This document shows positions 7,868 through 34,427 of a stretch of 34,427 nt of DNA, piece by piece. Origin of the DNA: a virus; IMG/VR virus record IMGVR_UViG_3300025120_000243, positions 1 through 34,427 of that record; one strand, given 5' to 3'. Position 1 is the first letter of the stretch, and each line of letters begins with the position of its first letter. Below the pieces are notes generated by a model. The model searched no databases. It saw nothing but the letters and a program-made list of their open reading frames with translations, and was not told the origin of the DNA. The position numbers and the translations under genes were made by a program.

Positions 7868-7881
7868 CAAGTGATTATAAT

Positions 7882-7908
7882 AAAGGCGGCTATGCGGCCG
7901 CCTTTTTT
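7882..7908 (+). terminator. Intrinsic terminator before the connector/tail genes
   Basis: A perfect 9-bp stem (7882-7890 with 7897-7905) closes a six-base loop and runs into six T residues (7903-7908). The hairpin lies 15 bp after the stop at 7867 and 20 bp before the next ATG. It contains an eight-base GC palindrome (GCGGCCGC, 7894-7901), which is rare in such an AT-rich sequence. Confidence 0.9.
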
Positions 7909-13867: not shown

Positions 13868-15682
13868 ATGGGTTATAAAGTTCAAGTAAAATATTTTAAC
13901 TCTTTTTGGAATAAGAAGATAATGGAAAAGCAAGTAAGTTTACCAAACTCACCTGGCCAGCCAAAATGGCCTGGGTTACCTTGGAATCCTAGCTTTACAC
14001 CATCTAACGGTAGCTCTGTTATAACTTATCCTACTTTTCCTGCTAACTATCAAGGTGGACAATCTGAAGCAGGTTGGTTAAACTACTATGTGGAAGAATC
14101 TAGATATAAGGGAGGTTTTAATAACCAAGGTGTTACTCTAGGCGTTAGAGCTTACGCTATAAACGATAGTAGAGAAAAACAAGACAGATCTAGTAGTTTA
14201 ATATACTCAGGTGTTTTAAACACAAGAACAGATTACAATAACACTAATGTGTTCTCTATAGCAGATGCTATAACAAAAGATTTAAATCCTCAAAATGGCT
14301 CTATACAAAAGCTTTACTCTGAGAACACTAACTTAATGGTTTTTCAACAGAACAAAACCGGTTATATTCTTGTTAATAAAAATGCAATATACTCTGGTAG
14401 TCAAGGTTCTGCCGAGGGTGGAGGTATAACTTTTTTAGGTCAATTAGTTCCATTTGCTGGTGAATATGGTATAAGTTCAAATCCTGAAAGTTTTGCCTTT
14501 TACGGATATAGAAAGTATTTTGCTGACAAGTATAGAGGTATTATTTGTAGAGTTTCTGGAGATGGTATAACTGAAATATCAGGATACGGAATGAGTGATT
14601 TTTTTAGAGACAAACTATCTAGTATAAAAGATGGTTTTCAAACGTTTACAATATCTCCTACATCTAGTGCTATATCAATACCCTCTGGCTCAACGGAGTT
14701 GTTAGCCGTTACTATAATAAATACCAACATATCACAAGTTGACATAGGGTCTATAATTGATATAGAATTAACAAATAAAGACTCTGGAAATATAGATGTT
14801 AATTATACAGGTAATGTATCTAACACATCTACTAGTGGGAATGATTTAATAGTTCATTTATCTCCTAAAATAACAGGTTTAACTCAATCAACTAACTACT
14901 CTGCTAAAGTAGATATATCTAGCGTTTATAGAGATAAAGTTTTAGCCGCTTGGGATACTCATAATAAATTTTACACAACATCTATTCAAACACTTCCTAG
15001 ACGTTTTTCAACTTCTACCGATACTTTTTCTACTTTAAGTTATGAAGAAAGAGTTCCTCAAGGTGGAGCTTGGACAACTTTTTACACTTACAAGCCTACA
15101 ATGATGGTTAGTTTAAAAGACTCGTTTTATAGTGTAATTGATAAATCTTTATATAAGCATTACTACCAAGATAAAACTGGTCTAGACGAAGACAGAGGTA
15201 GTTTTTATGGTGTTAAAGAACCTTCTAGTATAACTTTTATATTTAACAATAATCCTACAATAGTTAAAAACTTTAATACATTATCGTATGAAGGAAGTAA
15301 TGGCTGGGAAGTAGAGTCTATGGTTTCTGATTATGAAGGTTTTGAAGCTAATGGACCATTTCCTTCTGCTACGCCTTTAAGCTTCTCTCAAGACACTCAA
15401 TATAGAGATATAGCTAGACCAATAATGAGTTACATAGAAGGAGTTTATCAAGACGGTGGCATAACTTTTAGATCAGGTTTTGATAGAAAAGAAAATAAAT
15501 ACGTTGCTAACATAGTAAACAACAGTACTCAAAGACCTAATGAAATAATATATGGTAGTGATGTTAGTGGTATAAAAGGTTATTTTACAACTATTAAAAT
15601 GAAAACAGACGCTACGACACAGCCAGGTGGTGAAAAAGAATTATTTTCAGTTGCGGCAAATTTTGTAATATCATCAAATTAA
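13868..15682 (+). CDS. Second stem/muzzle-like structural protein
   Basis: This 604-aa protein is encoded 37 bp after the first stem gene. It contains EESRYKGGFNNQGVTLGVRAYAI, then SLIYSGVLNTRTDYNNTNVFS (about residues 112-132), QKLYSENTNLMVFQQNKTG (about 152-170) and NPESFAFYGYRKYFADKYRG (about 208-227). The block 'SLIYSGxxNxxTxxNxTNxFS ... xQKLYxExTNLxxFQExK ... GxYGxSxNPESFAxYGYRKYFxDKxRGxxxRLSxDGIxEIS' is characteristic of the C-terminal propeller part of large stem/nozzle proteins in Bacteroidota and marine phages. The upstream gene carries the N-terminal part, so the two products probably assemble together. The leader before 13868 is TAATTATATTATT with no Shine-Dalgarno sequence. Confidence 0.72.
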   Translation: MGYKVQVKYFNSFWNKKIMEKQVSLPNSPGQPKWPGLPWNPSFTPSNGSSVITYPTFPANYQGGQSEAGWLNYYVEESRYKGGFNNQGVTLGVRAYAINDSREKQDRSSSLIYSGVLNTRTDYNNTNVFSIADAITKDLNPQNGSIQKLYSENTNLMVFQQNKTGYILVNKNAIYSGSQGSAEGGGITFLGQLVPFAGEYGISSNPESFAFYGYRKYFADKYRGIICRVSGDGITEISGYGMSDFFRDKLSSIKDGFQTFTISPTSSAISIPSGSTELLAVTIINTNISQVDIGSIIDIELTNKDSGNIDVNYTGNVSNTSTSGNDLIVHLSPKITGLTQSTNYSAKVDISSVYRDKVLAAWDTHNKFYTTSIQTLPRRFSTSTDTFSTLSYEERVPQGGAWTTFYTYKPTMMVSLKDSFYSVIDKSLYKHYYQDKTGLDEDRGSFYGVKEPSSITFIFNNNPTIVKNFNTLSYEGSNGWEVESMVSDYEGFEANGPFPSATPLSFSQDTQYRDIARPIMSYIEGVYQDGGITFRSGFDRKENKYVANIVNNSTQRPNEIIYGSDVSGIKGYFTTIKMKTDATTQPGGEKELFSVAANFVISSN

Positions 15683-18423: not shown

Positions 18424-21400
18424 ATGGACGATTACTTAGATTTAGTATTCAAAGATGCTCAAGGTGTTTTTGGTAATGATTTTTGGAACATAGACGAATT
18501 TAAAAATACTATGTTATCAAGTAATGATTATGTAAAACACGTGTTTGAAGAATTAAATGGTAAGACTGAAAATGTAAACGAAAAAGACGTTGATGCTTTT
18601 TATGCTAAAGTACAAAATACTAAATTAAAAGCTTTAGCTCCTAACTACTCTAGTAAAATAGAAAAGCAAGATCAAGCTCAAAAGCAGCAGCAAAAAGATA
18701 TAGAAGAAGGTAAACAACTTGTTGAAGAACAAAAGTTAAAGCCTATGGACAGGAAGATAGATGAGTCAGACTTTATGCTTAATTCAGAAAGTACTCAAGT
18801 TAATATCAACTTACCTTTTATATACACCCCTGAAGCAGAAGAAAGAAAAGATAAACTAGTAATAGAAAATAAAAACCAAGAAGATCAAAATAAAATAAAT
18901 ACATATTTTAAATCTATTGAAAAGAAAGAGAAAAAGAAAGAAGACCCTAGAAAAGAAAAAGTTGAAAGTATTGCTAAAGGTGAAATAACTTACAAAACCT
19001 CAGATCCTAATCTTATAGTTCCTGAGTACAAGGATAATGTTTTAAATTTAGTACCAGGTGACAAAAACAAGAACGAAGCGCTTATAACCACTTTAAATGA
19101 TTTAGGATTAGATATAAATACTGATTTTAATTTTTATAAATCAAAATCCGCTCCTACTGATAGGGATGGAAATGAAATGTTAAAAGTTGGTGGGGCTAGA
19201 TATAAATCTTATAACCAAGTTTTAACTGAAACAATAACAGAAGCTTTAAATACTGAAGAAGGTAAAGAAATATTATCTATATATAATGCCGTACAGTCTA
19301 AAAGTATTGAAGCAAACATAGTTAATGAGACAGAAAAATGGGTAAAAGAAAATAATCCTAAAGATTCTGAAGCTCAAGTAGCAGATAAAGTTAATTTATC
19401 TATAACTAAAAATATGGCTTTGTCAGCCGACAACTTAACTAGCTCTTATATGGAAGAGCAGTATAATAACATAAGACCTGTACTTGATGAGTTGAAAATA
19501 CAAAGAACTAAAAGAACTTCTTCAGTTAAAACAAGAGCTGAAGAAATTTTTAAAGGAAAAGATTGGCCTAAAACAAACGAAGGTTGGCAAGCTGCATTAA
19601 TGGAAGCTAATGAGCAAATACCATTATCAGAAAAAGAAAAAGCTTTATTTGCTGAACATTCTAAAAACTTAAACAAATTTATGGCTGAAGGAGTAGTTCC
19701 TTTAGTAGATGCTAATGGTGGGTGGATTAGTGAAGCTAGAACTGATAAAGACTTTTTAGAAAAACAACAAATACAAAAACAACAAATTATAGAGTTGGGA
19801 ATGTTATCTCTTGATGCTAAAACCGATATGTTATTTAATTATGAAACAGAAATGTTAGCATTAATAAATAATATTAAGCAGTATGGTATTGAAAATGTCG
19901 TAAGTGACGCTAGTATAGCTCAAAGAATAGCTAGTTTCTATGATTCAATGACTGAAGGCGATGGATCGCTTAATACTATTGAAGGTAAAATCAATATGAT
20001 AACTTCTGGAGATAAAAATAAAACAATGGGTTTATTACCTCCATTACCAAGCGGAAGTCCTTTTACTGATCAGTATAATGAATTATTACAGAAGTATGTC
20101 ACAATGTCTGCTGCTGTAACATTAAATTATGATCCTTTATCTATGCCTAAAAGCTCTTTTGGAGATGGAGAAGGTTTCTTTGATGAACTAGCTCAAGGAT
20201 TTGTAGATATGGCTCCAGAAACTTTTGATATTTTTGACGTAGACGCTAATGAAGCTGCTAATATATTTGCTCAAGAATTACAAAGTCAAGGATACACATT
20301 AGATGCTAAAGAGCAAGAAAGAATAGATCAAGGTGTTGGTGAAATGATAGGTAATAGCTTACCTGCTCTTATAAAAATGGGTGTTGAAATATATGCTACA
20401 TCTGTAATGTTAGGTCCTGTTGGCGGTGTTGAAGCATTAAGTGCTGGCATGGGTAGGTTAGCGACTAGAGGTGTATTGAAAGCTACTGGTTCAAGAGGCA
20501 TGGCTAGAAGTGTAGGTACATTTATGAATATGTATGCTCATGAATCTATTGGACTTATAGGTTCTAATTATATAGGTGCTAATATGACCCACAGTGAAGG
20601 TATGCCTGTATATACTTTTGCATTAGGATCTACTTTAGGCCGTATGGGCTTAACTAAATTAATTTCTACAAAAGGAGCTGGAATTGACAAATGGTGGAAT
20701 ACTGTTAGTAATTCAAAAACATATGCTGGTGGAGTTGCTAGAACTTTAAATCATTTGAATACAGTTGTACCTATGGGTGGTGTAAGTGTTACAGCTAAAA
20801 GATTTGGCGAGGCTGGTATTGGTACATTATCAATAAAAGGTGGTGAAGGAGTAAGTGGCGGTATTGATGTTTTAAAAGGAGATATAACATTTGATGAGTT
20901 CTGGCATCATACTACTGACGCTAAGAGCTTTGTTTCTCTGTTTGGTGGTTTAGTTACTATGGGCATGTTTGGAAAGCCTGGAATGAAAGAAATGTACAAA
21001 GCAGTTAAGCTTGACATAAATACTATGCAAGGTGGTAAACGATGGGCAGAGTGGAATAGAAATGCTGAATTTCTAGGATTAAACAAAATAAATAAAATGC
21101 CTAAAAACGCTCAACCAGGTCAATATGGTGAAGGTATTACGTCTTGGTCTAAAGGTGAAATAACAAGCGCTAAAGATGCTAAGATAAAAGAAATTAATGA
21201 AAACAAAAATCTTGATGCTAAACAAAAAGTAGAAGCTATAGAATTAATAGAGAAAACAGCTAAAGGTCTAGAGATTAAAAGTGAGTTAGATAACATATAT
21301 GCTAACGAAGGTATTTATGATAGTTTCTTTTCAAGCAAAGATAATTTAAGAACACAATTTGAAAGAGTAACAGATAGGTTTAGACAGGGTAAAATTAGTG

Positions 21401-24400
21401 AGGTAGATCAAGATGTTATAGCTAATTTTGCTCATGACTTTGGTAGAGATTATGTTTCACTAAGAATACAAGAAGCTAGCGGCATGGGCAAAGTTGACGC
21501 TGACAATTTTGTAAATGCTTCTATACATGCTTCAAGAGCTACAACTGATAGAGGCTTTGGTATGAACTCACCATATAGAGCCAAGTATGTAGAAACAGAA
21601 ATGGTTGATAGACAGATAACTCAAAAGCGTAAAGCTATTAAAGAGTTTGATCAAATGAATGATGGTGAAAAGGCTAGAGAGTTTGAAAAGTTAGATAAGT
21701 TAGCTGAGCAAAACAAGTTAAGACAAGAAGAGCTGGCAAATAAACAAAGAGAATTTAATAAAGAAAAAGCTGAAGCTGATAAGAAGAAGTTTGATAAGGA
21801 AACTATAATAGAAGTTAAAGAGGATCAAACAGTAGATGATGTATTAAAAGAGTTGAATCCAGGGCAAGAAGTTAGTGAAACTAACGCTTTAGATTTTGGA
21901 GCACAAACAGTTGATAATAGACCTAACTCTAAAACAAAAGGTAAATCTATAATGATAGTTGATCCTAAGCTTGTAGATAGAGTGTTTACTGGATCACTTG
22001 AAAAATTGTATGAAAATAAAGGTGCTGTAGGTACTCTTATACATGAAGCTATACATCCTTTAACTAGTAGATATACGGATGTAAATATACTAGCTTCACA
22101 GTTAAAAGAAAATAATCCTAAATTAACAGATACCGAAGCTAGAAAATTAGCTAAAGAAAAGAAAGATAGTTTTGTTACAGACTTTATAGAAGTGTTAAAA
22201 AGCTCTGGCGAGTATGAAGCAGTGCTTCTTAAAGTAAAAGAAAATGCTGGTTATAAAAATGATAAATTAACAGATGAATGGTTTAGTGTTTATGGTGAGA
22301 TGGTTAATAGAGGTGAGCTTGACTTCTCTAAATCAAAAAGAAATAAGTTTAAAAACTTCGGTAAAAAAGCTGCAGAATTTTTAAATACATCTAAACCAGG
22401 ATTAAAAGCTAATTGGGAATCAGGTAAAGATGTTTACGACTGGATAACAGCATTCGCAAGTGGTAAAGGTAGAGAGGCAAATGAAGTCTATAAAAAAGGT
22501 GTAAAAGAATACGAAGACTTAGTTAAAAACTACGATCTATCTAAACCTCTTAGAAACAGTGTAGATAGAGATGCTAAAGGAGTTATGGCCAAACTGTATA
22601 ACGATGTAACTGATTACAGATCTAAGATAGATGCTAAAGGATCTGATCCAGTTAAAGCCGCTGCCGAAGCAAACAAAGCTTGGAAAGAAGGTGGAGCAAA
22701 TAAATTTATAGATAAAATATATAGAGATGGAACTTTAGATCGTTTAATAATGAGTAAAATACCATCTATAAAGCCTCCAGGTTGGTTAAAAGAGTTTGTT
22801 ATAGACCCAATGACAGGTAGAGAAGTAAACCAAGGAGATTTAGAATTTAAACAAAGTGTTTTTGTTGAATTAATAAATCATATAAAAAGCTTTAAAGTAG
22901 ACAAACAAACTACAAGTGCTGAAGACGGTTTATTTGCTTGGATAAACTCTCAATTAAGTAATAAAATAGGAGAAGTTTATAAAAAAGGAAATGTAGGTAC
23001 TAAAGAAGCTTATGATATGACCTATGAACAAGCTACAGAAGCTGGTCAACAAATAGCTGGTGAAATGGAAGCTGTTGTTAGAGAGGTAGAATCTAAAAAA
23101 CCTAGTCAACTTTACAAAGAACTAAATATAGATAAAAATGTTTCATCAAAACTAGAGCGTGATGTTATAGACATGGACTATAAAAGCATGGCTGACATAA
23201 GTAAAAAAGGAGGTAAAAATCAAAGAATATCACCTTTTATGCGAGACTTTAAAAAACAAGCTGGAGATAAACTAGGTAAAACTATATACGAAGAAGTATT
23301 TAACAAAGGTAAAAATTTAGACTATATAAAGAACAACTATGTAGAGATAGTTAAGAACCTTAATGAAGGTTATTTATCTAAAAATTTTCCAGAAATTGTA
23401 GAAAAAAGAGTTAACGGTGAATATACTAGCGATTGGCAAGGTAAGAAAATTGATGTAATAGGTGCTGAAAAAGGATTTACATCAGGCCCTGAGTATATGA
23501 GATTAAGACCTGATTTTGAAAGCGAATTAAATAAAGATTATTTTGTTAGCAAATTTAATTCTGAAGCTTTTTCAAATGCTAGTAATCCTTCTAGTGCAAG
23601 AGCCGCTAAGTACAAGGGTCTAGCTTACCAAATGGGAGATAAAATAGCTATAACTAAATTCAAACAAGAAGTAGATGCTGGTGTAAAAATAAAAGACAAT
23701 ATATTTAAACTACAAGAAAGTCTTATTAACTTAGATGCTAATTTACAAAAGTATGAGCTTTTAAAAGCAGAACACCCAGAATGGACAGCTAACAGGTTGA
23801 TGAGAGAAACTGATAATGTTACTAGTGGAAACTACTTTGACAAAAAAGTTCAATTAAGAGAAGATTTATTAGAAAACAAAATAGAACTTGGTGATTATGA
23901 AATATTTGAAGGCTTTACTAATGGTATAAAAACAGAAAACACCTCACCTGAGCTTTCTCAGCAGTTAAACAATAGCATAGAAAACGCTATGTTTAGAAGG
24001 AATAGTGTTATACGTAGAGATTTTCCAGTAGAAGCACAGTTGGAATCTTTCGTTAAGCTAGAGCAAGTTAAAGATATATTAAACAAGCAAGAAATAGCTG
24101 ATGTTAAAAACCCAAACATGCTATTTAAAAGAGCATTAATGGAATCTTTTGGTTGGGATGGCAAAGAATCAGTTAGACAATTAACAGAAGATTTTACACC
24201 TACTGGAGATCAAATGATGAAAATGCTAAAAAACTTAAACGATGGTGCTAAAACATTTAAAAAGATTAAAGCTCAAGGTGATAAAAACAAGAAAGCTTCT
24301 ATTAGATTTGATAATGAATCTTTAGTTGAATCTATTAAGATAGCTAAACAAGCTGAAGCTGAGAAAATATTGCTAAGAGAATTAGGATTACCTGAAAATA

Positions 24401-27400
24401 TAAGTTTACTAGAAGTTGCAAGAGGAGAAGGAACACGAGCGGAAATGCAAAATGTAGATTTTAAAGAAATAAAAAGTGCTATACTTAATGCTAAAGATCC
24501 AATAGCTAAAATAAATAATATAATATTAAATAGAGCACAGTATACCGGTGGTCAAAAAGGTAAGTCAGTTGAAAGATTGAAATGGTATGATACTACCTCT
24601 GAGTTTATAGATAAAGCTTTTAAACCAGCTTTAGAAGCTGCAGGTTATGAAGTAGAATATTCTGGTGGTAAAATGAATACTATGGTAATTAAAAAAGCCG
24701 GTAAAGAAATTAACATAGACTACAGAAATATAAGCGCACAAAAACCTAGAACATTTTTAACAAATAAAAAAGTTTTGAGTGAAGATGGATCTTTAAACAT
24801 AAAAGGTGATAAGTTTAAGGAAAAACTAGACTTACAAGAAAAAGATGCTGAATCAGCTCAAGAAAGAGTTATAGATCAAATGAGTTTTCTAGCCAATGAG
24901 TTTCATCAAGGTGGAGTTACTCCTCTTGAAGTAGCGCTAGCTGTTAAAAACCTACAAGGAGACATGCAAGGAGCTTTAAGAGCTTCTGCTAAGTTAACTG
25001 AAATTTGGCAACCAGTAGAAGGTGAAAGTTATATAACTGGCAAAGACATACAGTCTGATAACACAAGATGGGAGCATAAAAAACCTGCTGAGTTTATGGT
25101 TAATGAGTTGTCTAGAATATTTTTAGGTAATAAATTTATAGAAGAAGTTAGTACAGGAGAAAATACTACTAAATTTGAACTAAATGAAGCTGGTAAAAAA
25201 GAATTAAAAGAATTGTTTGATGATTACACGGTAGCTATAATACCTGTTTCTATGGATAACATATTTGAAGAAATAGGTTTTAAATCATCAGATCCAAAAG
25301 AAATTGATAGATATTACAATGAAAGAAGCAAAACAGATTCTAGACTTAGACAATTAAGAAACTTAAGAACTGGAGAAATTAGAGGATCTGAATTTATGTC
25401 TAAAGAAAATAGACAAAAATTATTACAAGAAGATCATTCTGTGCTGACTAATTCTGGTTTATTTAATAGATCATCTGTAAATAAAAAAAGTGTCTCAGAT
25501 GTTATTAAAATAACAGAGAGCATGGATAAGTCTTTAGACAAAGCTAGATCTGTTAACACGCCAGTTAAAAAAATTAGAATATTTGACTTTGACGATACTT
25601 TAGCTACTAGTAAAAGTTCAGTTTTTTACAACAAGCCTAATCCATCTGGGAAGCCGTCACCTAAGCGTAAGGCCATATTTATGATTGGTGGACCAGGTTC
25701 TGGTAAATCAAACATTGGAAAAGGTTTAGAACTTGGTAGAGAAGGTTGGAAAGTTGTTAATCAAGATATATTTATAGAAGCTGAAAAATCTAAACAAGGA
25801 TTACCTGAAGTAGAAAAAGACTATAACAAAGATCAAAGAAGTTCTAGAGCTAAGATAGGTGCTGCTGGCAAGAAAGCTGCAGATGCTAAAATGGAAAAGT
25901 ACAGACAAGCTGGTGATGGAATGGTTATTGATGGCACAGGTGCTAGCTATAATGCTACTATGAAAAAAGTTAATAAACTTAAAGAGCAAGGTTATGAAGT
26001 GTTTATGGTTCACGCTAAGACCTCTAATGAAGTTGCTCTTGAAAGAAATAGAGCTAGAAAAGAAAGATCATTAAAAGATTTTATTGTAGAAAAAACACAA
26101 AACTCAGTAAATGAAAACATACCTAAATATATGAAAGATCTAGGTGAAAATTTCATGGAGATAGACACTGAAACTATAGAGTATGGAAAACCTTTACCAA
26201 AAGATTTTGTTAAAAAGGTAAAACAAAATGTTTATAAAACTGAAAGAGGCATTTTAAATGCTGAAGAGTTTGCTAAAGACGGTAAAAGATTAATTGACGA
26301 AGGAGCAGCTATGGACTTTTCAGATTTTAATATAGTAAGAGAAGGTGAACGTGGTCCATTGTTTAAAATAGCTGAAAAAATTAGAGATGCTAGAGGTACA
26401 GAAGACGTGTTTGTTTTAACAGCAAGAGCTCCTGAGTCTCAACAAGCAATACATGAGTTTTTAAAATCTGAAGGTTTAGACATACCAATAAAAAACATAA
26501 CAGGTTTAGGTAAATCAACAGGTGAAGCTAAAGCAGAGTGGGTGTTAAATAAAACATCTGAAGGTTATAATGACTTTTATTTTGCAGACGATGCTATGGC
26601 TAATGTTGAAGCTGTTAAGAAAGTTTTAGATCCTATAGATGTAAAGTCAAAAGTTCAACAAGCTAGAGTAAATAGAAACTCTATAGATTTAGATAAAACT
26701 TTTAATGATATTATAGAGGGAAAAACAGGTATAGAATCTTTTAAAGAGTTTTCAGGAGCCAAAGCAGAAGTAAGAGGTAAAGGTAAAGGTAGAGGTAAGT
26801 TTATCACTCCTCCATCTGCTCAAGATTTTTCTGGTTTAATGGATTATACTTTAGGCAAGGGAAGTGTAGGAGAAGCACAGAGAGAATGGTATAATGAAAC
26901 CTTATATAAGCCTTATAATAGAGCTCAAAGAGCTGTAGCTACTGATAGAATAAACTTAATGGATGATTTTAAAGCTATTAAAAAAGAGTTAGATATACCT
27001 AAAGATTTAAGAGAAACAACACCAAGTGGTTATACTAAAGAGCAAGCTGTTAGAGTTCACTTGTGGGATAGACTTGGTGAAAAAGTTCCTAAGTTAACAA
27101 AGTCGGATTTAAAAGAAATAAATGAAATAGTAACATCTGACCCAAAGCTAAGTGCTTTTGCAGATCAAATACTTCAGATAACTAAAGGTGATGGTTATTC
27201 AAAGCCTAAAGAACATTGGCTGTCAGGTACTATAACAACTGATTTTATGGATCTTCTTAATACTACTAAACGTAGTAAGTATTTAGAAGAGTGGCAACAG
27301 AATGCAGATATAATATTTTCAGATAAAAACTTAAATAAATTAGAAGCAGGTTTTGGTAAGAAATATAGAGAAGCTTTAGAAAACTCTTTAGCTAGAATGA

Positions 27401-29259
27401 AAGCTGGTAAAAATAGAATACAAGAAGGTAATAGACTAAGCGATAAAGTTTTAGATTATATAAACAACGCACAGGGAACTATAATGTTCTTAAATATGAG
27501 GTCTGCACTTCTTCAAACAATATCATCAGCAAACTTTGCTAACCTAACATTTAATAACCCACTAAGAATGGGTCAAGCTTTTGCTAACCAACCTCGTTAT
27601 TGGAAAGACTTTATGAAAATTATGAATTCAGACTATTTAAGAGATAGACGTAATGGTTTGAAAATAAATATATCAGAGTCTGAAATAGCTGACGCAGCTT
27701 CTAGTAGTAGTAACAAAGCTAAAGCAGCTATTAACTATATACTAGAAAAAGGATACGCTCCTACTAAGTTTGCTGATAGTTTTGCTATTGCTTCTGGTGG
27801 TGCAACATGGTATAGAAACAAGATAAGAAGCTTAATTAAAGAAGGTAAAAGCGAGAAAGAAGCTGAAAAAGAAGCTTACGAAGAATTTATTGAAATTTCT
27901 GAAAAATCACAACAGTCTTCTGATCCTAGTAAAATATCACAACAACAGTCTAGTGATATGGGTAGATTGTTATTACAGTTTGTTAATACACCAATGCAGT
28001 ATAATAGACTTCAAATATCAGATGCTAAAGACTTAATAAACGGTAGAGGTAACCCGTTAGAGAAGGTTAGCAGAATACTTTATTATGGATTTGCACAAAA
28101 TATGTTTTTTAATTTAATGCAGCAAGGTATGTTTGCTTTAGGGTTTGGAGATGATTTTGGTGATGCTGAAGTTGAAAATAAGTTTTTAGATACAGCAAAT
28201 GGAATGTCTGATAGTATTTTAAGAGGTACAGGTTTAGTAGGTATGACAGCTTCTGTTATTAAAAACTTAGCGCTAGACGTTTATAAAAGAAGCAAAAGAG
28301 ACAGACCTGAATACATCGATGCAACTCAAAAGCTTTTAGATTTTTCTCCAGCTATAAAAAATAAGTTTTCTAAATTTAAGAATGCTGCTTATCAATTTGA
28401 TGATCCACTTAAAAGAAGTCAAATGGATGATGGTTTTAGTTTGGAAAACCCTGCATTTAAAGCCGCAACTAAAGTTGTTTCTGGAGTTACAAATGTTCCA
28501 TTAGATAGAGGCTTACAAAAAATAGAAAATATAAAGTATGCAATGAGTGATGACTCTGAAGACTGGCAGAAAGTAGCTTCAATACTAGGTTGGCCACAAT
28601 GGCAGTTAGAAGGTAAAGAAACTAAAGATGCTAGAAGAGATGATCAGAAACAAAAGCTAAGACAAGAGCAAGCTATAGAAGATCCATCTAAATATTCAAA
28701 AGCTCAACAAGTTGATATACTTAAAAAACATGGATATTCCGAAGAAGAAATAAAGAATCTTAAAAAAGAAGATCAAAGAGTTGAAGCTATATTAAAATCT
28801 CAAAAAGAAAACAATAAAATACACACTTCAAATATAAAAACTAAAAAACAAACACTGAAAGAAGTTTTAAAACAAAAACCTAACTTAAGTGAAGCTGATA
28901 AAAAAACCAACGATAATGTGGCTAAGTATTATAAAATGGGTAAAAACGAGCAAGTTGAATTACTTAATAAATACTGGGCCAAAAAAGATATTAGAACTAA
29001 ATTTAATACAGAACAAAAAAGAGTTGATCAGCTTTTAAGGTTGATTGAAAATGATAGCATACCTGATAGATTAAAAAGAAAAGAAAACATACCAGCAAGT
29101 CAAAGAACAGAACAACAACGTAGAATATATAGTCTAAATAAAAAAGATCAAATAGATACTTTAAAATCTCTTGGTTTAAATGATAGCGTTATAAAAACAC
29201 TAAGATTAGAAGCTGATAGAGTTAGTAGAATAGAGGAACTATACAAAAACAAAAAATGA
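18424..29259 (+). CDS. Giant 3611-aa multidomain (polyvalent) phage protein
   Basis: This is one uninterrupted 10.8-kb frame. Visible parts in order: an acidic helical N-terminus; hydrophobic stretches near residues 650-735; Lys/Glu coiled coils near 1080-1160; a zincin-like protease motif HEAIH (H1207, E1208, H1211) with a later DEWF (E1285) as possible third ligand; long helical regions; a conserved block near 2216-2310 (WEHKKPAEF, then DYTVAIIPVSMDN); a HAD phosphatase with motif I D2388/D2390, motif II T2666, K2703 and motif IV D2722/D2723, interrupted by a P-loop kinase (GGPGSGKS, 2422-2429); a conserved phage region from about 2800 (GEAQREWYNETLYKPYNRA) to 3270; and three repeats from 3425 to the end. 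Such giant proteins are known as phage polyvalent or internal proteins, often thought to enter the cell with DNA. Injection and overall role here are inference. Confidence 0.85.
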   Translation: MDDYLDLVFKDAQGVFGNDFWNIDEFKNTMLSSNDYVKHVFEELNGKTENVNEKDVDAFYAKVQNTKLKALAPNYSSKIEKQDQAQKQQQKDIEEGKQLVEEQKLKPMDRKIDESDFMLNSESTQVNINLPFIYTPEAEERKDKLVIENKNQEDQNKINTYFKSIEKKEKKKEDPRKEKVESIAKGEITYKTSDPNLIVPEYKDNVLNLVPGDKNKNEALITTLNDLGLDINTDFNFYKSKSAPTDRDGNEMLKVGGARYKSYNQVLTETITEALNTEEGKEILSIYNAVQSKSIEANIVNETEKWVKENNPKDSEAQVADKVNLSITKNMALSADNLTSSYMEEQYNNIRPVLDELKIQRTKRTSSVKTRAEEIFKGKDWPKTNEGWQAALMEANEQIPLSEKEKALFAEHSKNLNKFMAEGVVPLVDANGGWISEARTDKDFLEKQQIQKQQIIELGMLSLDAKTDMLFNYETEMLALINNIKQYGIENVVSDASIAQRIASFYDSMTEGDGSLNTIEGKINMITSGDKNKTMGLLPPLPSGSPFTDQYNELLQKYVTMSAAVTLNYDPLSMPKSSFGDGEGFFDELAQGFVDMAPETFDIFDVDANEAANIFAQELQSQGYTLDAKEQERIDQGVGEMIGNSLPALIKMGVEIYATSVMLGPVGGVEALSAGMGRLATRGVLKATGSRGMARSVGTFMNMYAHESIGLIGSNYIGANMTHSEGMPVYTFALGSTLGRMGLTKLISTKGAGIDKWWNTVSNSKTYAGGVARTLNHLNTVVPMGGVSVTAKRFGEAGIGTLSIKGGEGVSGGIDVLKGDITFDEFWHHTTDAKSFVSLFGGLVTMGMFGKPGMKEMYKAVKLDINTMQGGKRWAEWNRNAEFLGLNKINKMPKNAQPGQYGEGITSWSKGEITSAKDAKIKEINENKNLDAKQKVEAIELIEKTAKGLEIKSELDNIYANEGIYDSFFSSKDNLRTQFERVTDRFRQGKISEVDQDVIANFAHDFGRDYVSLRIQEASGMGKVDADNFVNASIHASRATTDRGFGMNSPYRAKYVETEMVDRQITQKRKAIKEFDQMNDGEKAREFEKLDKLAEQNKLRQEELANKQREFNKEKAEADKKKFDKETIIEVKEDQTVDDVLKELNPGQEVSETNALDFGAQTVDNRPNSKTKGKSIMIVDPKLVDRVFTGSLEKLYENKGAVGTLIHEAIHPLTSRYTDVNILASQLKENNPKLTDTEARKLAKEKKDSFVTDFIEVLKSSGEYEAVLLKVKENAGYKNDKLTDEWFSVYGEMVNRGELDFSKSKRNKFKNFGKKAAEFLNTSKPGLKANWESGKDVYDWITAFASGKGREANEVYKKGVKEYEDLVKNYDLSKPLRNSVDRDAKGVMAKLYNDVTDYRSKIDAKGSDPVKAAAEANKAWKEGGANKFIDKIYRDGTLDRLIMSKIPSIKPPGWLKEFVIDPMTGREVNQGDLEFKQSVFVELINHIKSFKVDKQTTSAEDGLFAWINSQLSNKIGEVYKKGNVGTKEAYDMTYEQATEAGQQIAGEMEAVVREVESKKPSQLYKELNIDKNVSSKLERDVIDMDYKSMADISKKGGKNQRISPFMRDFKKQAGDKLGKTIYEEVFNKGKNLDYIKNNYVEIVKNLNEGYLSKNFPEIVEKRVNGEYTSDWQGKKIDVIGAEKGFTSGPEYMRLRPDFESELNKDYFVSKFNSEAFSNASNPSSARAAKYKGLAYQMGDKIAITKFKQEVDAGVKIKDNIFKLQESLINLDANLQKYELLKAEHPEWTANRLMRETDNVTSGNYFDKKVQLREDLLENKIELGDYEIFEGFTNGIKTENTSPELSQQLNNSIENAMFRRNSVIRRDFPVEAQLESFVKLEQVKDILNKQEIADVKNPNMLFKRALMESFGWDGKESVRQLTEDFTPTGDQMMKMLKNLNDGAKTFKKIKAQGDKNKKASIRFDNESLVESIKIAKQAEAEKILLRELGLPENISLLEVARGEGTRAEMQNVDFKEIKSAILNAKDPIAKINNIILNRAQYTGGQKGKSVERLKWYDTTSEFIDKAFKPALEAAGYEVEYSGGKMNTMVIKKAGKEINIDYRNISAQKPRTFLTNKKVLSEDGSLNIKGDKFKEKLDLQEKDAESAQERVIDQMSFLANEFHQGGVTPLEVALAVKNLQGDMQGALRASAKLTEIWQPVEGESYITGKDIQSDNTRWEHKKPAEFMVNELSRIFLGNKFIEEVSTGENTTKFELNEAGKKELKELFDDYTVAIIPVSMDNIFEEIGFKSSDPKEIDRYYNERSKTDSRLRQLRNLRTGEIRGSEFMSKENRQKLLQEDHSVLTNSGLFNRSSVNKKSVSDVIKITESMDKSLDKARSVNTPVKKIRIFDFDDTLATSKSSVFYNKPNPSGKPSPKRKAIFMIGGPGSGKSNIGKGLELGREGWKVVNQDIFIEAEKSKQGLPEVEKDYNKDQRSSRAKIGAAGKKAADAKMEKYRQAGDGMVIDGTGASYNATMKKVNKLKEQGYEVFMVHAKTSNEVALERNRARKERSLKDFIVEKTQNSVNENIPKYMKDLGENFMEIDTETIEYGKPLPKDFVKKVKQNVYKTERGILNAEEFAKDGKRLIDEGAAMDFSDFNIVREGERGPLFKIAEKIRDARGTEDVFVLTARAPESQQAIHEFLKSEGLDIPIKNITGLGKSTGEAKAEWVLNKTSEGYNDFYFADDAMANVEAVKKVLDPIDVKSKVQQARVNRNSIDLDKTFNDIIEGKTGIESFKEFSGAKAEVRGKGKGRGKFITPPSAQDFSGLMDYTLGKGSVGEAQREWYNETLYKPYNRAQRAVATDRINLMDDFKAIKKELDIPKDLRETTPSGYTKEQAVRVHLWDRLGEKVPKLTKSDLKEINEIVTSDPKLSAFADQILQITKGDGYSKPKEHWLSGTITTDFMDLLNTTKRSKYLEEWQQNADIIFSDKNLNKLEAGFGKKYREALENSLARMKAGKNRIQEGNRLSDKVLDYINNAQGTIMFLNMRSALLQTISSANFANLTFNNPLRMGQAFANQPRYWKDFMKIMNSDYLRDRRNGLKINISESEIADAASSSSNKAKAAINYILEKGYAPTKFADSFAIASGGATWYRNKIRSLIKEGKSEKEAEKEAYEEFIEISEKSQQSSDPSKISQQQSSDMGRLLLQFVNTPMQYNRLQISDAKDLINGRGNPLEKVSRILYYGFAQNMFFNLMQQGMFALGFGDDFGDAEVENKFLDTANGMSDSILRGTGLVGMTASVIKNLALDVYKRSKRDRPEYIDATQKLLDFSPAIKNKFSKFKNAAYQFDDPLKRSQMDDGFSLENPAFKAATKVVSGVTNVPLDRGLQKIENIKYAMSDDSEDWQKVASILGWPQWQLEGKETKDARRDDQKQKLRQEQAIEDPSKYSKAQQVDILKKHGYSEEEIKNLKKEDQRVEAILKSQKENNKIHTSNIKTKKQTLKEVLKQKPNLSEADKKTNDNVAKYYKMGKNEQVELLNKYWAKKDIRTKFNTEQKRVDQLLRLIENDSIPDRLKRKENIPASQRTEQQRRIYSLNKKDQIDTLKSLGLNDSVIKTLRLEADRVSRIEELYKNKK

Positions 29260-30354: not shown

Positions 30355-30510
30355 TCATATTTTAATAGTTATACCTATTGACACTATAAAAGCGCCGCTT
30401 GCTATTGCAAGTGTGTTTGAATTAAAATCTAGCTTTTGCTTATGCCAGATCATGTTGGTACCAGCAAATGTCATCATGCCGATACCACCTATTACAGCTA
30501 GTCGTTTCAT
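30355..30510 (-). CDS. 51-aa two-helix membrane protein
   Basis: The product starts MKRLAVIGGIGMMTFAGTNM and ends SGAFIVSIGITIKI. Two hydrophobic segments (about residues 4-20 and 33-49) are separated by a polar, positively charged loop (WHKQKLDFNSN), giving a small hairpin membrane protein. Its ATG overlaps the reductase stop as ATGA (30507-30510), good evidence for coupled translation. Size and topology would fit a small holin-like or membrane-modulating phage protein, but the family is unknown. Confidence 0.65.
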   Translation of the reverse strand: MKRLAVIGGIGMMTFAGTNMIWHKQKLDFNSNTLAIASGAFIVSIGITIKI

Positions 30511-32369
30511 TTTATTTCACAATTATCACCTGCACAAGCTAATTCTCCTGCAAGATCCGTTTCATCTTCTGTCTCTACAATCCTACTAAGATCAACATCT
30601 TTAAGATGAGTCATAGCCATGTCATAGTGTACTTTACTTATGTCTTCAAAAGGTGCTTGAGTATATGTACCTCCATCATAAGGTAGCACAGACAAACCGT
30701 TGTAATGATCTCTATTTTCCCACATCCATCTACCAGCGGCATCCCACTCTTCTTTTTTCAAGCTAACAGTAGCTGAAACATTATGAGTGTTAGATCCTTT
30801 TCTATGACCAGGTTTAACCCATTCAGTAGCTACCTTTTTTATTCTTTCAAGTAAATCAAATGGTGATTCATCTCTTAATATAGAACCTTTAGGTGCTTTT
30901 TGTGGTATGCTAATCACCGCGGTATCATGAGGTCTGAAAAATTCATCTTCAATTAACTCAGGATGATTTTTAGATAAGTACTTATACATGGATTCATTTT
31001 TACCAACTCTGATTCTACGCGTATAATAATCTGCATGCCAAGCATGAATACCAGACGAAGTTCCTAATGCCAGAGATGTCGTCCCAGCAGGCTTCACAGT
31101 TGTACATCTTGCAGCTGGATTAATACCAATTGCTTTAGCTGTCTTTGTATTCTCTCTTTTTACTATACTTGCAGCGGCCTTCATATCCAACGGCAGCACA
31201 GCGGCACTCGCGATCCCTGTCATTGATACACCTATAAGCGCGTCCTTCTCTGTCGTATCTTTCCATATGTCTCTTAAATAATGAAAGTCAGTATAACCTG
31301 CTTGTAGTGTACCTATAAAGCTAGCGTATTTAACTCTCTCGTTTAAATCATCTTGTGATTCAATATCACTAGCATTTACCTCACATAAGTTGCAAAACTG
31401 AAAAGGTCTTAATGCTATTTCACAACAAGGGTTTGTACCCCAGTCTTTATCGTTGTTAAGATATATACCAGGCTCACCTGATCCTGATAACTCTACACGT
31501 TTCCAAAGATCCATAAAAAACTCTTGAGTAACTTTATGTCTCATAAGAACAGCTGAGTTGTTAGCTCTACCTCTTTGTGGGTTAGTTTCCCACCAAGTTC
31601 CTGATTTACAACTTATCATCTCGCTATCTTCAGCAGAAAACAAACTAATTAAAGCAGCTCTACGTATACCGCCTGCTAAAACTGAATCAGCTATATGACA
31701 AACTATATCGTGAGCCTCAACAGTAGTTAATGGTACACCGTCGTCTTTAGAATCGAATATACCTTTAATCTTTAGTATACACTCTTTTAGTGGCTGAGGT
31801 CCTGGTGCTTTACCACCTGATGTAACTAACTGTGCACCTTTAGCTCTAATATCTGAGTAATCAAACTCTACAGTAGAACTTCTTTTATCACCCATATAAG
31901 ATTTCATAAGAACTTTAATTGCGTCAGCCCAACCTTCAATACTATCGCCAATTAAAAACCTTCTAGTTCTTTTAGTGTAAGGTTGATTAACTGGCGGCAT
32001 TTGCTTTACATGGTGGTTTTGTACTGAGTATCCAACTCCTGTACCTCCAAGCAAGAGGAACATTGTCTCGTGGAAACTATCAATGTGATCAATTGGTAAA
32101 TAAGCGCAATTATACACACGATTAGGGCTAATCTCAATCGGTTTACCTCCGAATTGTAAAGAGCGCATGCTCGGTAGAATCTTCTTTTCATATACTAGTT
32201 TGTAAGCTTCGTTAATTTTATCAGCAAGATTAGGGTATTTTTTAATATGCATAGCTTTATTTCTATCTACTAACTCTATCCATGTTTCTCTACGATTTAA
32301 CTCAGGTACAAATTTAGCATATTTCATGTAAACTGTTATATCACTTAGTATCTTGTTGCTCAACTCCAT
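30507..32369 (-). CDS. Class II (adenosylcobalamin-dependent) ribonucleoside-triphosphate reductase
   Basis: This 620-aa enzyme reduces ribonucleotides to deoxyribonucleotides for phage DNA synthesis. The active-site set of the monomeric class II family (Lactobacillus leichmannii RTPR type) is visible: redox Cys C88 (in YNCAY) and C326 (in FCNLC); thiyl-radical Cys C315 with N313 and E317 (NPCCEIA); and the C-terminal shuttle pair C612/C617 in CAGDNC (CX4C). The spacing from C315 to C326 equals that of C408 to C419 in RTPR. No separate small subunit gene is present, which agrees with a B12-dependent enzyme. It is shorter than RTPR (about 740 aa). The residue after the radical Cys is Cys instead of the common Gly. 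The ATG at 32369 keeps the conserved LSDITVYMKYAKF start; it overlaps the upstream gene by 29 bp. Confidence 0.93.
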   Translation of the reverse strand: MELSNKILSDITVYMKYAKFVPELNRRETWIELVDRNKAMHIKKYPNLADKINEAYKLVYEKKILPSMRSLQFGGKPIEISPNRVYNCAYLPIDHIDSFHETMFLLLGGTGVGYSVQNHHVKQMPPVNQPYTKRTRRFLIGDSIEGWADAIKVLMKSYMGDKRSSTVEFDYSDIRAKGAQLVTSGGKAPGPQPLKECILKIKGIFDSKDDGVPLTTVEAHDIVCHIADSVLAGGIRRAALISLFSAEDSEMISCKSGTWWETNPQRGRANNSAVLMRHKVTQEFFMDLWKRVELSGSGEPGIYLNNDKDWGTNPCCEIALRPFQFCNLCEVNASDIESQDDLNERVKYASFIGTLQAGYTDFHYLRDIWKDTTEKDALIGVSMTGIASAAVLPLDMKAAASIVKRENTKTAKAIGINPAARCTTVKPAGTTSLALGTSSGIHAWHADYYTRRIRVGKNESMYKYLSKNHPELIEDEFFRPHDTAVISIPQKAPKGSILRDESPFDLLERIKKVATEWVKPGHRKGSNTHNVSATVSLKKEEWDAAGRWMWENRDHYNGLSVLPYDGGTYTQAPFEDISKVHYDMAMTHLKDVDLSRIVETEDETDLAGELACAGDNCEIK

Positions 32370-32565
32370 CTTCTGCTTTTTTATTTGTTTTAACTTGTTT
32401 TTCTAAAAACTCAATTGCACGATCATAATCAGGCATGCATTTGATTGTTTCAAGAGTTCCTATACCAAGGTCTCTTAAATTGTTTATTTCATTTACTAAA
32501 TACTGAACAACATTTGTTAATGATTCAATTTTATTTTTCATTTCTAATAACTTGCTTTCTTTCAT
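32341..32565 (-). CDS. Small coiled-coil protein, function unknown
   Basis: This 74-aa protein has a leucine/isoleucine heptad pattern in residues 5-35 (LLEMKNKIESLTNVVQYLV), a short Gly/Thr-rich turn, a second helix (YDRAIEFLEKQVK) and an acidic/Gln tail. Its start forms an ATGA overlap with the preceding 44-aa gene, and its end overlaps the reductase start by 29 bp, so it is embedded in the coupled operon. It may be a small oligomeric adaptor; no family was recognised. Confidence 0.62.
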   Translation of the reverse strand: MKESKLLEMKNKIESLTNVVQYLVNEINNLRDLGIGTLETIKCMPDYDRAIEFLEKQVKTNKKAEDGVEQQDTK

Positions 32566-32696
32566 CTTCCTTGTCCTTTGTATTTTTTCTTATATAATTT
32601 ACTTCCTATTGAATTAGAAGTTTTACATTTACTATGTACACCTTTTCTTTTAACTGTTGTAGTCTTTTGATACGGTAATAATGTCAACTTTGCCAT
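32562..32696 (-). CDS. Small basic conserved phage protein
   Basis: This 44-aa protein includes KRKGVHSKCKTSNSIGSKLY and ends KKKYKGQGR. The 'KGVHSKxKTSxxxxSKxYKKKYxGQGR' pattern is one I recognise from tiny conserved proteins beside nucleotide-metabolism genes in marine phages. Its stop overlaps the next start as ATGA (32562-32565), and its start lies 47 bp inside the preceding 65-aa frame. It is highly positively charged, so RNA or DNA contact is likely; function is unknown. Confidence 0.7.
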   Translation of the reverse strand: MAKLTLLPYQKTTTVKRKGVHSKCKTSNSIGSKLYKKKYKGQGR

Positions 32697-32847
32697 ATTT
32701 TTCGCTATATTTAATTAAGTCTTTGTATTTTAAATATCCTTTAACTTCAATACTCCAGTCAATAAACTTTTGTAATTGACGCTCAGCATATTTCCTTCTT
32801 GCTAAGTCTTTCTGCTCGAAAGAATTAAGTTCACGGTTTCTTCGCAT
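32650..32847 (-). CDS. Small basic protein, function unknown
   Basis: This 65-aa, mostly helical protein runs from an Arg-rich start (MRRNRELNSFEQKDLARRKY) to a Tyr/Lys-rich second half (YLKYKDLIKYSEKYGKVDII). It overlaps the endonuclease gene by 46 bp and the next gene by 47 bp. Both overlaps are long, but the 105 bp between those genes would otherwise be empty in an operon with no other gaps. The amphipathic helices suggest a folded product. No family was recognised. Confidence 0.6.
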   Translation of the reverse strand: MRRNRELNSFEQKDLARRKYAERQLQKFIDWSIEVKGYLKYKDLIKYSEKYGKVDIITVSKDYNS

Positions 32848-33251
32848 TCCTTTTGATTTTGAGGTTTGTATAACGTAATGTTCGGCAAGTGTTTATGTAC
32901 ATAAGCTTTAAATAGTTTCCAGCGTATGGGAAAAGATTCATTAGCACGTCCTTTACATTCAATAATAAAATTATCTCCCACAAAATCCGGAGTATACTTG
33001 ATATTAAGTATTTTTTTATTACCTCGATTACGGAACTCTCCTTTGCCATTTCCTTGTCTTTCATAAGCTTCTTGTTCAAAGTTAAAAGAAGGGACAAGCT
33101 CGTAAGTTTGTCCCTCGTAATGTGCCTTGATTTTAGCCTTTTTTAAGGCTATATACATGTGTTTTTCTAAGCCAGATGCAAATTGTATTCCATCATGCTT
33201 AACTTTTTTAGATCTTACCGGACCTTTCTTACGGCTAAACCGGCGCGACAT
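32802..33251 (-). CDS. PD-(D/E)XK endonuclease, phage endonuclease I-like
   Basis: This 149-aa protein has the restriction-like nuclease core: E29 in a helix (SGLEKHMYIALKKAK), then D89 in YTPDF and the E98-x-K100 pair in IIECKGR. The spacing PD-x8-ExK fits phage junction-resolving nucleases of the T7 endonuclease I type. The N-terminus is strongly basic (MSRRFSRKKGPVRSKKVKHD). Likely roles are resolving branched replication intermediates or breaking host DNA for nucleotide reuse, in line with neighbouring nucleotide enzymes. The start ATG overlaps the preceding MazG-like gene by 17 bp. The choice between a resolvase and a general endonuclease cannot be made from sequence alone. Confidence 0.82.
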   Translation of the reverse strand: MSRRFSRKKGPVRSKKVKHDGIQFASGLEKHMYIALKKAKIKAHYEGQTYELVPSFNFEQEAYERQGNGKGEFRNRGNKKILNIKYTPDFVGDNFIIECKGRANESFPIRWKLFKAYVHKHLPNITLYKPQNQKECEETVNLILSSRKT

Positions 33252-33570
33252 GATCGTCCCAGTCTAGTTGTGCTGATGAAGCGTGCGAAGGATGTGGTGG
33301 TCTAAAACTAGCTTTGTTAACTTCAGCTATAGCTTCTTTAGCTATTGAGTTGTCGTTTAACTCTTCTTTAGCTGCTTGAATATATAGAATAGCATCCATT
33401 AGTTCTTCTTGCACGTCATTAAGATAACCAGCTAGATCTTTATGTCCACCAGTTCTTTCATCGTGTAATGTTCTACCATACTTAGCATAGCCAACATCTG
33501 ATCTTGTAACGAACTTATCGCAGACTCTTTCTACAACAGGATCTCTGAATAATATAGTTTTACTTTTCAT
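33235..33570 (-). CDS. MazG-like nucleotide pyrophosphohydrolase
   Basis: This 111-aa protein carries VQEELMDAILYI (EExxD), preceded by KYGRTLHDERTGGHKDLAGY. This matches phage all-alpha NTP pyrophosphohydrolases that act on (d)NTPs. The likely role is cleaning or shaping the nucleotide pool, beside the reductase. I chose the ATG at 33570, which starts MKSKTILFRDPVVERVCDKF, over a TTG nine bases upstream; it overlaps the upstream fusion gene by 11 bp. The C-terminal 30 residues are Pro/His/Ser/Ala-rich and end acidic. A resemblance to dATP/dGTP diphosphohydrolases of the MazZ type is possible but unproved, and no purZ-like gene is in view. Confidence 0.78.
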   Translation of the reverse strand: MKSKTILFRDPVVERVCDKFVTRSDVGYAKYGRTLHDERTGGHKDLAGYLNDVQEELMDAILYIQAAKEELNDNSIAKEAIAEVNKASFRPPHPSHASSAQLDWDDHVAPV

Positions 33571-34427
33571 CTTTAACAAATGTTCCGTTAACCATTTTAC
33601 CAGTACGTTTAGATATTACCTTGTATGCTGAATCAATACATTTTTCAATAGTTGTACCGCCAAGATGAGCCATATTAGTTAATACAACAACCATATCTCC
33701 AATAGCATCTTCAAATTCAAGTTGATCATCTTTTAATACAGCTCTACCAAGTTCACCAGCTTCTTCCATAAGCTTACAGAACTGAGTTTTCTTATCACCT
33801 TTAGTGTATAAACCTCTTTCACCAGCCCAGTCTCTTATTAGCTGAAACCTGTTATCTGTTTTCATATAATCTAAAGTACCGTTAGATCTAGTTGTAAGAC
33901 CATCTAGGTAGACTTGATATGCGTCTTTACCAAATGGAAACTTTAAACTTCCTTGATCAACGTGATCTTTAACTTGAAAGTACTTAGCAAATGCTTTATT
34001 ATATATATAACATCTCTCCATTGTGTACTGAGATGTTGTTACGTTATCCATTATCCATTCAATGGTTTGCATATTGATTTCAAATGTACCGTGTGTTGTT
34101 TCCCACGTTTTACTCATGTTATCCATTAACCTACCTTTTAGCTTGGTAATTGGTACAGGAAACGTAGAAGTCTGCTCTGTCGCGTTTATGTGCATTGTAT
34201 TAGATTTTATTTTATTAATATATAGATCTTTATATTTCTGTCTATCAACTCGGTAGCCGTAAGACTGTTGAAGTTCTAACTCGCGGTCAGATATATAATC
34301 AATATCTGTACTTTGTTCTAGAACTTCTACTTCGTCTAAGCTGTAGCCTTGTTGGTCTACGACTCTAGATATAAGATCACGTGTAACACCTATTTTTTTA
34401 CCCGGTATATGGTATAAATAATAATTA
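33560..34427 (-). CDS. GIY-YIG-like plus MazG-like fusion protein, 5'-truncated
   Basis: The frame stays open from the window edge (first full codon at 34426) through the ATG at 34195 to the TAA at 33560, giving at least 288 residues. The 77 codons before that ATG contain no stop and no ATG, GTG or TTG, and look coding, so the gene starts outside the window. Visible residues 2-69 (YYLYHIPGKKIGVT, R21, then SDRELELQQSYGYRVD with E49) resemble the GIY-YIG nuclease core, with KIG standing for YIG. A middle region has TSTFPVPITKLKGRLMDN. The C-terminus (about 205-280) is MazG-like: EEAGE (E221, E222, E225) and EDAIGD (E239, D240, D244). The MazG part is well supported; the GIY-YIG call is weaker because the motif start is missing. 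Confidence 0.75.
   Translation of the reverse strand, partial: NYYLYHIPGKKIGVTRDLISRVVDQQGYSLDEVEVLEQSTDIDYISDRELELQQSYGYRVDRQKYKDLYINKIKSNTMHINATEQTSTFPVPITKLKGRLMDNMSKTWETTHGTFEINMQTIEWIMDNVTTSQYTMERCYIYNKAFAKYFQVKDHVDQGSLKFPFGKDAYQVYLDGLTTRSNGTLDYMKTDNRFQLIRDWAGERGLYTKGDKKTQFCKLMEEAGELGRAVLKDDQLEFEDAIGDMVVVLTNMAHLGGTTIEKCIDSAYKVISKRTGKMVNGTFVKDEK

What the first reader, a model, noticed from the sequence alone, without database searches (positions are those of the whole stretch)
25582..26650. P-loop kinase inserted inside a HAD phosphatase within the giant protein
HAD motif I (DFDDTLATSKS, D2388/D2390) is followed by a complete zeta-toxin/polynucleotide-kinase-like P-loop domain (Walker A 2422-2429; a later VIDGTG strand and an Arg-rich lid, RNRARKERS). 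Only then do HAD motifs II (T2666), III (K2703) and IV (D2722/D2723) appear. HAD domains of this type in related phage proteins, as I recall them, run straight from motif I to the 'LNAEEFAKDG' segment, which here resumes at about residue 2610 after the insert. Phosphatase plus kinase in one unit recalls polynucleotide kinase-phosphatases that heal RNA or DNA ends (T4 Pnkp), but those are tandem, not nested. An end-healing or nucleotide-modifying cassette in a possibly injected protein could counter host nuclease defences. The role is speculative.
Basis: partly seen in the sequence, partly recalled or inferred. Interest (0 to 1): 0.72.

Follow-up and report, generated by a model that had tools for sequence, protein, structure and literature searches.

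The report
Kinase nested inside a phage phosphatase
In a large family of uncultured marine phages, a giant and probably injected protein carries a phosphatase enzyme with a whole kinase enzyme grafted into the loop where such phosphatases normally carry their lid, so one unit could both add and remove phosphates; the design is real, conserved and, as far as I could find, undescribed, but its target is unknown.

Summary
Confirmed and extended. In the 3611-aa ORF (18424-29259 +), HAD motif I (D2388/D2390) is followed by a complete ~200-aa zeta/polynucleotide-kinase-like P-loop kinase, and only then by HAD motifs II-IV (T2666, K2703, D2722/D2723). Related viral contigs give the control: 50 homologues run straight through with no insert (175/176 aa) and 30 carry the kinase (373-378 aa). 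AlphaFold models put the kinase at the tip of the flap hairpin after HAD strand 1, the textbook C1-cap site: the phosphatase's cap is a second enzyme. HAD catalytic residues are invariant in 73 kinase-bearing and 48 insert-less sequences; Walker A glycines and lysine, D2448, DGTG and the lid arginines are invariant in all 73; dN/dS is low. Kinase and shell trees conflict, so kinases have been exchanged at this one site. Rarer forms un-nest the pair within one polypeptide or keep the kinase alone. Architecture and conservation are shown; activity is inferred. Leading mechanism: a virion-delivered kinase/phosphatase acting on nucleic-acid ends (about 0.4); a sugar-nucleotide or other small-molecule pair is the main rival. 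The PNK DxxR motif is absent and no RNA ligase was found in 35 related contigs. New variant of a known kind.

The parts
18424..29259 (+). giant ORF, 3611 aa, probable virion cargo / polyvalent protein
   Evidence: syntenic with the last gene of the structural block in Cellulophaga phage phi38:1, annotated structural protein; lies downstream of a crAss-type muzzle protein
25558..25617 (+). HAD N-terminal part: strand S1 with motif I DFDDT (D2388, D2390) and squiggle
   Evidence: D2388, D2390 and T2392 invariant in 73 kinase-bearing and 48 insert-less shells; model strand 5-10
25618..25638 (+). flap hairpin strand 1 (aa 2399-2405)
   Evidence: model E21-27; insert-less model E21-25
25639..26238 (+). 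inserted P-loop kinase, about 200 aa (aa 2406-2605)
   Evidence: absent from 50 of 80 homologues; Pfam Zeta_toxin/AAA_33
25687..25710 (+). Walker A GGPGSGKS (aa 2422-2429)
   Evidence: G2422, G2425, G2427 and K2428 invariant in 73 of 73; S2429 is S, T or G
25765..25767 (+). D2448 of VNQDIFIE, predicted general base
   Evidence: invariant in 73 of 73
25924..25941 (+). VIDGTG strand/loop (aa 2501-2506)
   Evidence: DGTG invariant in 73 of 73; aligns with EGTG of zeta and DAT of C. thermocellum Pnkp
26044..26067 (+). lid RNRARKER (R2541, R2545, R2548)
   Evidence: all three Arg invariant in 73 of 73; aligns with the RNKNRTDR lid of C. thermocellum Pnkp
26239..26259 (+). flap hairpin return strand (aa 2606-2612)
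   Evidence: model E228-234; insert-less model E31-35
26260..26679 (+). HAD C-terminal part with motifs II (T2666), III (K2703) and IV (D2722/D2723)
   Evidence: all four residues invariant in 121 sequences; seen uninterrupted in insert-less homologues

Best explanation
A HAD-superfamily phosphatase whose C1 cap is a complete P-loop (PNK/zeta-like) kinase. Shown here: the kinase lies in the turn of the flap hairpin after HAD strand 1, both active sites are conserved and under purifying selection, and kinase cassettes have been exchanged at this one site among phages. Inferred: the kinase lobe lies over the HAD active site as caps do, so the unit can add and remove phosphate on one class of substrate. 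The giant protein is carried in the virion and enters the cell with the DNA. The substrate is most likely nucleic-acid ends (5'-OH phosphorylation plus 3'-phosphate removal), countering host nuclease damage early in infection. Confidence about 0.95 for the architecture, 0.7 that both sites are active, 0.6 for virion delivery, 0.4 for the nucleic-acid-end substrate and so for the complete statement at most.
For: Bimodal lengths 175/176 versus 373-378 aa; alignment across the junctions; models with the kinase between the flap strands, and the definition of C1 caps as inserts in the middle of the flap hairpin (PMC8069645). Catalytic residues invariant; dN far below dS in both parts, e.g. window/L002 kinase 0.013 against 0.612. 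Nested in about 75 of 80 kinase loci. Exchange: L005/L009 shells 85% and kinases 54% identical, L007/L021 shells 55% and kinases 87%; kinase groupings that the shells would predict are rejected (AU p 0.003 and 1e-23). Nucleic-acid ends: PHROG 415 for the HAD half and 505 for the kinase half, both named polynucleotide kinase; profile hits to C. thermocellum Pnkp and T4 Pnk kinases; Foldseek 4gp6/4gp7 TMt 0.67-0.68; RNxxRxxR lid. Virion delivery: synteny with phi38:1 gp101, muzzle-gene neighbour and crassvirus cargo genes (PMC10172136).
Against: The PNK DxxR acceptor motif is absent (D-I-x-[LI]-E). No RNA ligase was found in 35 related but mostly incomplete contigs (the PF09511 search had no positive control). 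The HAD fold is nearest to AphA acid phosphatase, Lem4/Ceg4 and MDP-1, not PNK 3'-phosphatase, and PF08645 does not reach threshold in the window. Kinase-only and phosphatase-only forms exist at the same slot, so coupling is not obligatory. The giant protein has no detectable sequence relative in cultured phages outside the kinase.
Confidence: 0.4

Rival explanations
1. A small-molecule switch: the kinase phosphorylates a sugar nucleotide (zeta-like, UDP-GlcNAc) or another metabolite and the HAD removes the phosphate, altering cell-wall precursors or detoxifying a host-made molecule during entry.
For: Pfam Zeta_toxin is the top family; zeta 3q8x is the top Foldseek hit by E-value; zeta's EGTG aligns with DGTG here; an existing database entry of the same family is named UDP-N-acetylglucosamine kinase; zeta-like kinases are known in polyvalent and MuF phage proteins (PMC5512222); the insert-less HAD is closest to acid phosphatase AphA.
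Against: The acidic residue aligned with zeta E100 is not conserved (D2487 in the window, V in L007). The fold covers zeta poorly (TMt about 0.5) compared with C. thermocellum Pnkp (0.68).
Confidence: 0.3
2. The two enzymes are functionally independent: the flap hairpin is just a permissive insertion point in a polyvalent protein, where a mobile kinase cassette was tolerated.
For: Kinase and shell are decoupled in the trees; kinase-only (L107, L108, L240, L242, L243) and un-nested forms (L110, L113) exist.
Against: The kinase recurrently occupies one hairpin out of a protein of over 3000 aa, and the un-nested forms keep both enzymes in one polypeptide.
Confidence: 0.2
3. The pair edits protein phosphorylation: the HAD is a protein phosphatase (Lem4/Ceg4/MDP-1-like) and the kinase modifies a host protein or its own HAD.
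For: Foldseek ranks 2-4 for the insert-less HAD are Lem4, Ceg4 and MDP-1.
Against: P-loop kinases of this clade act on small molecules or nucleic-acid ends (general knowledge); E-values are modest (5e-4 to 9e-4).
Confidence: 0.08
4. Assembly artefact or chance motif resemblance.
For: The window is a fragment of an uncultured virus.
Against: The nested form recurs in dozens of contigs from many samples in one open frame, with invariant catalytic residues; 0 of 2000 shuffles.
Confidence: 0.01

Closest known systems
T4 Pnkp / phage PNK-HAD fusions (PMC7824862)
   Same: One polypeptide with a P-loop kinase of PNK type and a HAD phosphatase; the lid RNxxR is shared with T4 Pnk (the latter from memory)
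   Different: Known ones are tandem, kinase first; here the kinase is nested in the HAD flap. DxxR is absent and the HAD does not reach PF08645.
Clostridium thermocellum Pnkp kinase domain (4gp6, 4gp7)
   Same: Best length-normalised fold match among listed PDB hits; RNxxRxxR lid and following helix
   Different: Its phosphatase is a metallophosphoesterase in tandem with a ligase (general knowledge); no nesting; its DxxR is absent here
Zeta / PezT toxins (UDP-GlcNAc kinases)
   Same: Walker A, the base Asp, EGTG/DGTG loop; Pfam family call
   Different: No conserved equivalent of zeta E100; sits inside another enzyme
HAD phosphatases with C1 caps (e.g. phosphoserine phosphatase)
   Same: Insert in the middle of the flap hairpin; HAD motifs I-IV
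   Different: In the source I read, caps are helical or alpha+beta substrate lids; here the cap is itself a P-loop kinase
Polyvalent proteins of phages and conjugative elements (PMC5512222)
   Same: Very large multi-enzyme phage protein; HExxH and zeta-like kinase domains are known members of the class
   Different: The word phosphatase does not occur in that paper's main text; the nested pair is not described there

Membership tests
HAD superfamily phosphatase | Motif I DxDx[TV], motif II T/S, motif III K/R, motif IV acidic pair | tested here: met
   D2388, D2390, T2666, K2703, D2722 and D2723 invariant in 121 sequences
HAD superfamily phosphatase | Rossmannoid HAD fold | tested here: met
   Insert-less model matches AphA, Lem4, Ceg4, MDP-1 with E 5e-4 to 9e-4, probability 1.00
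HAD C1-capped | Domain inserted in the middle of the flap beta-hairpin | tested here: met
   Hairpin strands 21-27 and 228-234 flank the kinase; insert-less hairpin 21-25/31-35; definition
HAD C1-capped | Cap covers the HAD active site and shapes substrate access | not testable with these tools
   No coordinates returned
Polynucleotide 5'-kinase (T4 / C. thermocellum Pnkp) | P-loop and Arg-rich lid RNxxR(xxR) | tested here: met
Polynucleotide 5'-kinase (T4 / C. thermocellum Pnkp) | DxxR acceptor motif (from memory) | tested here: not met
   N[QS]D-I-x-[LI]-[EQ] in 78 of 80, never Arg at D+3
T4-type Pnkp | Tandem kinase then PNK3P-type HAD | tested here: not met
   Nested; PF08645 below threshold
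T4-type Pnkp | 5'-kinase and 3'-phosphatase activity | not testable with these tools
   needs assay
Zeta toxin (UDP-GlcNAc kinase) | Pfam PF06414 above cut-off | tested here: met
   43.6 bits against 22.3
Zeta toxin (UDP-GlcNAc kinase) | Substrate-site residues E100 and T118 (roles from memory) | tested here: inconclusive
   T118 equivalent T2505 invariant; E100 equivalent not conserved
Polyvalent phage protein | Very large multidomain protein with several effector enzymes | tested here: inconclusive
   3611 aa with HAD, kinase and an HExxH at aa 1207; no significant Pfam domain elsewhere in it
Polyvalent phage protein | Packaged and delivered at infection | not testable with these tools
   Synteny only

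The most novel reading that the evidence does not exclude
A P-loop kinase acting as an exchangeable C1 cap of a HAD phosphatase: two opposed phosphate-transfer enzymes share one substrate pocket in a virion-injected protein, and phages swap the kinase cap to change specificity. If so, it is a nested kinase/phosphatase with coupled active sites.
Probability: 0.35. Interest if true: 0.82.

Novelty: new variant of a known kind. Interest (0 to 1): 0.62.

Why it matters
HAD caps set what a phosphatase acts on; a cap that is itself a kinase would be a new way of making a bifunctional phosphate-transfer enzyme, with natural controls (with, without, swapped, un-nested) already in sequence collections. 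It also points to an early-infection function in widespread marine phages whose giant proteins are otherwise unannotated.

Tried and rejected
Chance or artefact: rejected. A single origin of the kinase-bearing shells: the quick tree forces at least 4 changes, but the AU test does not formally reject one clade (p 0.062), so repeated insertion is not claimed; exchange of kinases is. Sequence relatives of the rest of the giant protein in cultured phages: none, and no HAD or Walker A motif in the syntenic giant of MW202828. RNA ligase partner: none found. PDB sequence search with the HAD profile: no credible hit. Bacterial genomes: only 8 hits, mostly on short contigs of metagenome bins, which I take as likely viral. 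Held literature on a kinase nested in a HAD: nothing found, which does not prove absence. The apparent oddity of L068 was only an N-terminal extension of the match. A dedicated search for other domains in the same hairpin was not made.

Full report
Observation. The 3611-aa ORF at 18424-29259 holds HAD motif I at aa 2388-2392, a P-loop kinase at about 2406-2605, and HAD motifs II-IV at T2666, K2703 and D2722/D2723, exactly as reported. Pfam calls the kinase Zeta_toxin (E 3e-11) and AAA_33 (E 5e-11). The motif order does not arise in 2000 shuffles.

Insert-less homologues. A scan of viral contigs with aa 2373-2769 found 556 relatives, of which the best 80 were kept. Cut from motif I to just past motif IV they fall into two classes: 50 of 175/176 aa and 30 of 373-378 aa (one of the latter cut to 353 by a contig end). 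The alignment shows the two classes matching on both sides of a gap of about 200 residues in a turn of the type P-D-G-T.

Structure. The window segment was modelled with an alignment of 53 sequences (pLDDT 89.4, pTM 0.76), the insert-less L035 with 27 (pLDDT 85.6, pTM 0.76). The HAD elements are the same, offset by 199 residues. In the insert-less model strand 1 (5-10) is followed by a hairpin (21-25, 31-35). In the window model the hairpin strands are 21-27 and 228-234 and the kinase lies between. Inserts in the middle of this flap hairpin define C1 caps (PMC8069645). I had no coordinates, so I cannot say how the kinase is oriented to the HAD pocket.

Conservation. In 73 distinct kinase-bearing and 48 insert-less sequences D2388, D2390, T2666, K2703, D2722 and D2723 are invariant. 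In the kinases the Walker A glycines and K2428, D2448, the DGTG loop, R2541, R2545 and R2548 are invariant; S2429 may be S, T or G. dN is far below dS in both parts in ten pairs, e.g. 0.013 against 0.612 in the kinase of window and L002.

Evolution. A second scan with the kinase profile found 195 relatives, 80 kept; about 75 lie in the HAD hairpin. The shell tree does not group all kinase-bearing shells (at least 4 changes), though the AU test does not reject one clade (p 0.062). Kinase and shell disagree: L005 and L009 share 85% of the shell but 54% of the kinase, L007 and L021 55% and 87%, and kinase groupings predicted by the shells are rejected (p 0.003 and 1e-23). Hence kinases have moved between shells at this one site. 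Other forms: in L110 and L113 the kinase lies about 950-1050 aa upstream of an uninterrupted HAD in the same polypeptide; in L107, L108, L240, L242 and L243 the kinase occupies the slot and no HAD motif I is seen. Free-standing kinases of the clade occur in Pelagibacter phage HTVC008M, in Melnitz phages and in L205-L213, and one lies in the minor head protein of cyanophage PSS2.

What it might do. By profile the kinase matches C. thermocellum Pnkp, zeta, PezT and T4 Pnk; by fold zeta is first by E-value and C. thermocellum Pnkp best by length-normalised TM-score among the listed hits. It keeps the RNxxRxxR lid (78 of 80) but has D-I-x-[LI]-E in place of DxxR. The HAD half matches PHROG 415 and the kinase half PHROG 505, both named polynucleotide kinase, but by fold the insert-less HAD is nearest to AphA, Lem4, Ceg4 and MDP-1. 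No RNA ligase was found in 35 related contigs, which are mostly incomplete. I therefore put nucleic-acid end processing at about 0.4, a sugar-nucleotide or other metabolite pair at 0.3, and functional independence at 0.2.

Setting. The portal protein is 50% identical to MW202828, 41% to Flavobacterium elemo phages and 34% to Cellulophaga phi38:1; a crAss-type muzzle C-terminal domain lies in the ORF at 13868-15682. The giant gene ends the structural block as phi38:1 gp101 does, which is annotated structural protein by similarity to phi18:1 gp101. In crassviruses the cargo proteins gp45-gp50, numbered after the muzzle protein gp44, are carried in the virion and ejected (PMC10172136). Delivery of the window's protein is an inference from this; apart from the kinase no sequence relative was found in cultured phages.

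Known kinds. Polyvalent phage proteins with zeta-like kinases (PMC5512222) and tandem PNK-HAD proteins (PMC7824862) are described; I found no description of a kinase nested in a HAD flap, within the papers held. I rate it a new variant of a known kind: both enzymes are known, the arrangement, as far as I could find, is not.

Noticed in passing
window 22042-22056 (aa 1207-1211): HExxH metallopeptidase-like motif (HEAIH) in the giant protein, typical of polyvalent proteins.
   Followed up: partly
window 13868-15682: ORF with the C-terminal domain of crAss-type muzzle protein (PF25729, E 7e-11), linking this phage to crassvirus-like tails.
   Followed up: partly
window 30507-34195 (-): Ribonucleotide reductase with a B12-dependent-type insertion domain (PHROG 367, E 8e-130), next to a Holliday-junction-resolvase-like ORF and a MazG-like ORF.
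   Followed up: no
L022 and L038 (IMGVR_UViG_3300025131_000066): One contig yields two kinase-bearing giant genes on opposite strands; chimeric assembly not excluded.
   Followed up: no
L028 about 7140-7900, L038 about 7130-7700: Similar-looking extra domain of unknown function just after HAD motif IV in two kinase-bearing lineages.
   Followed up: no
L110, L113: Kinase and uninterrupted HAD both present in one polypeptide but about 950-1050 aa apart.
   Followed up: yes
L107, L108, L240, L242, L243: Kinase occupies the HAD slot with no HAD motif I; L107 keeps the flap-like remnant VPNVKGGFS.
   Followed up: partly
L083:3690-8189 (cyanophage PSS2): A related kinase lies inside a 1499-aa protein annotated minor head protein.
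   Followed up: no
L044:6016-6543, L034:6016-6540 and other insert-less HADs: Match to DUF2608 (PF11019) in 24 of 27 members (best E 3e-7).
   Followed up: partly
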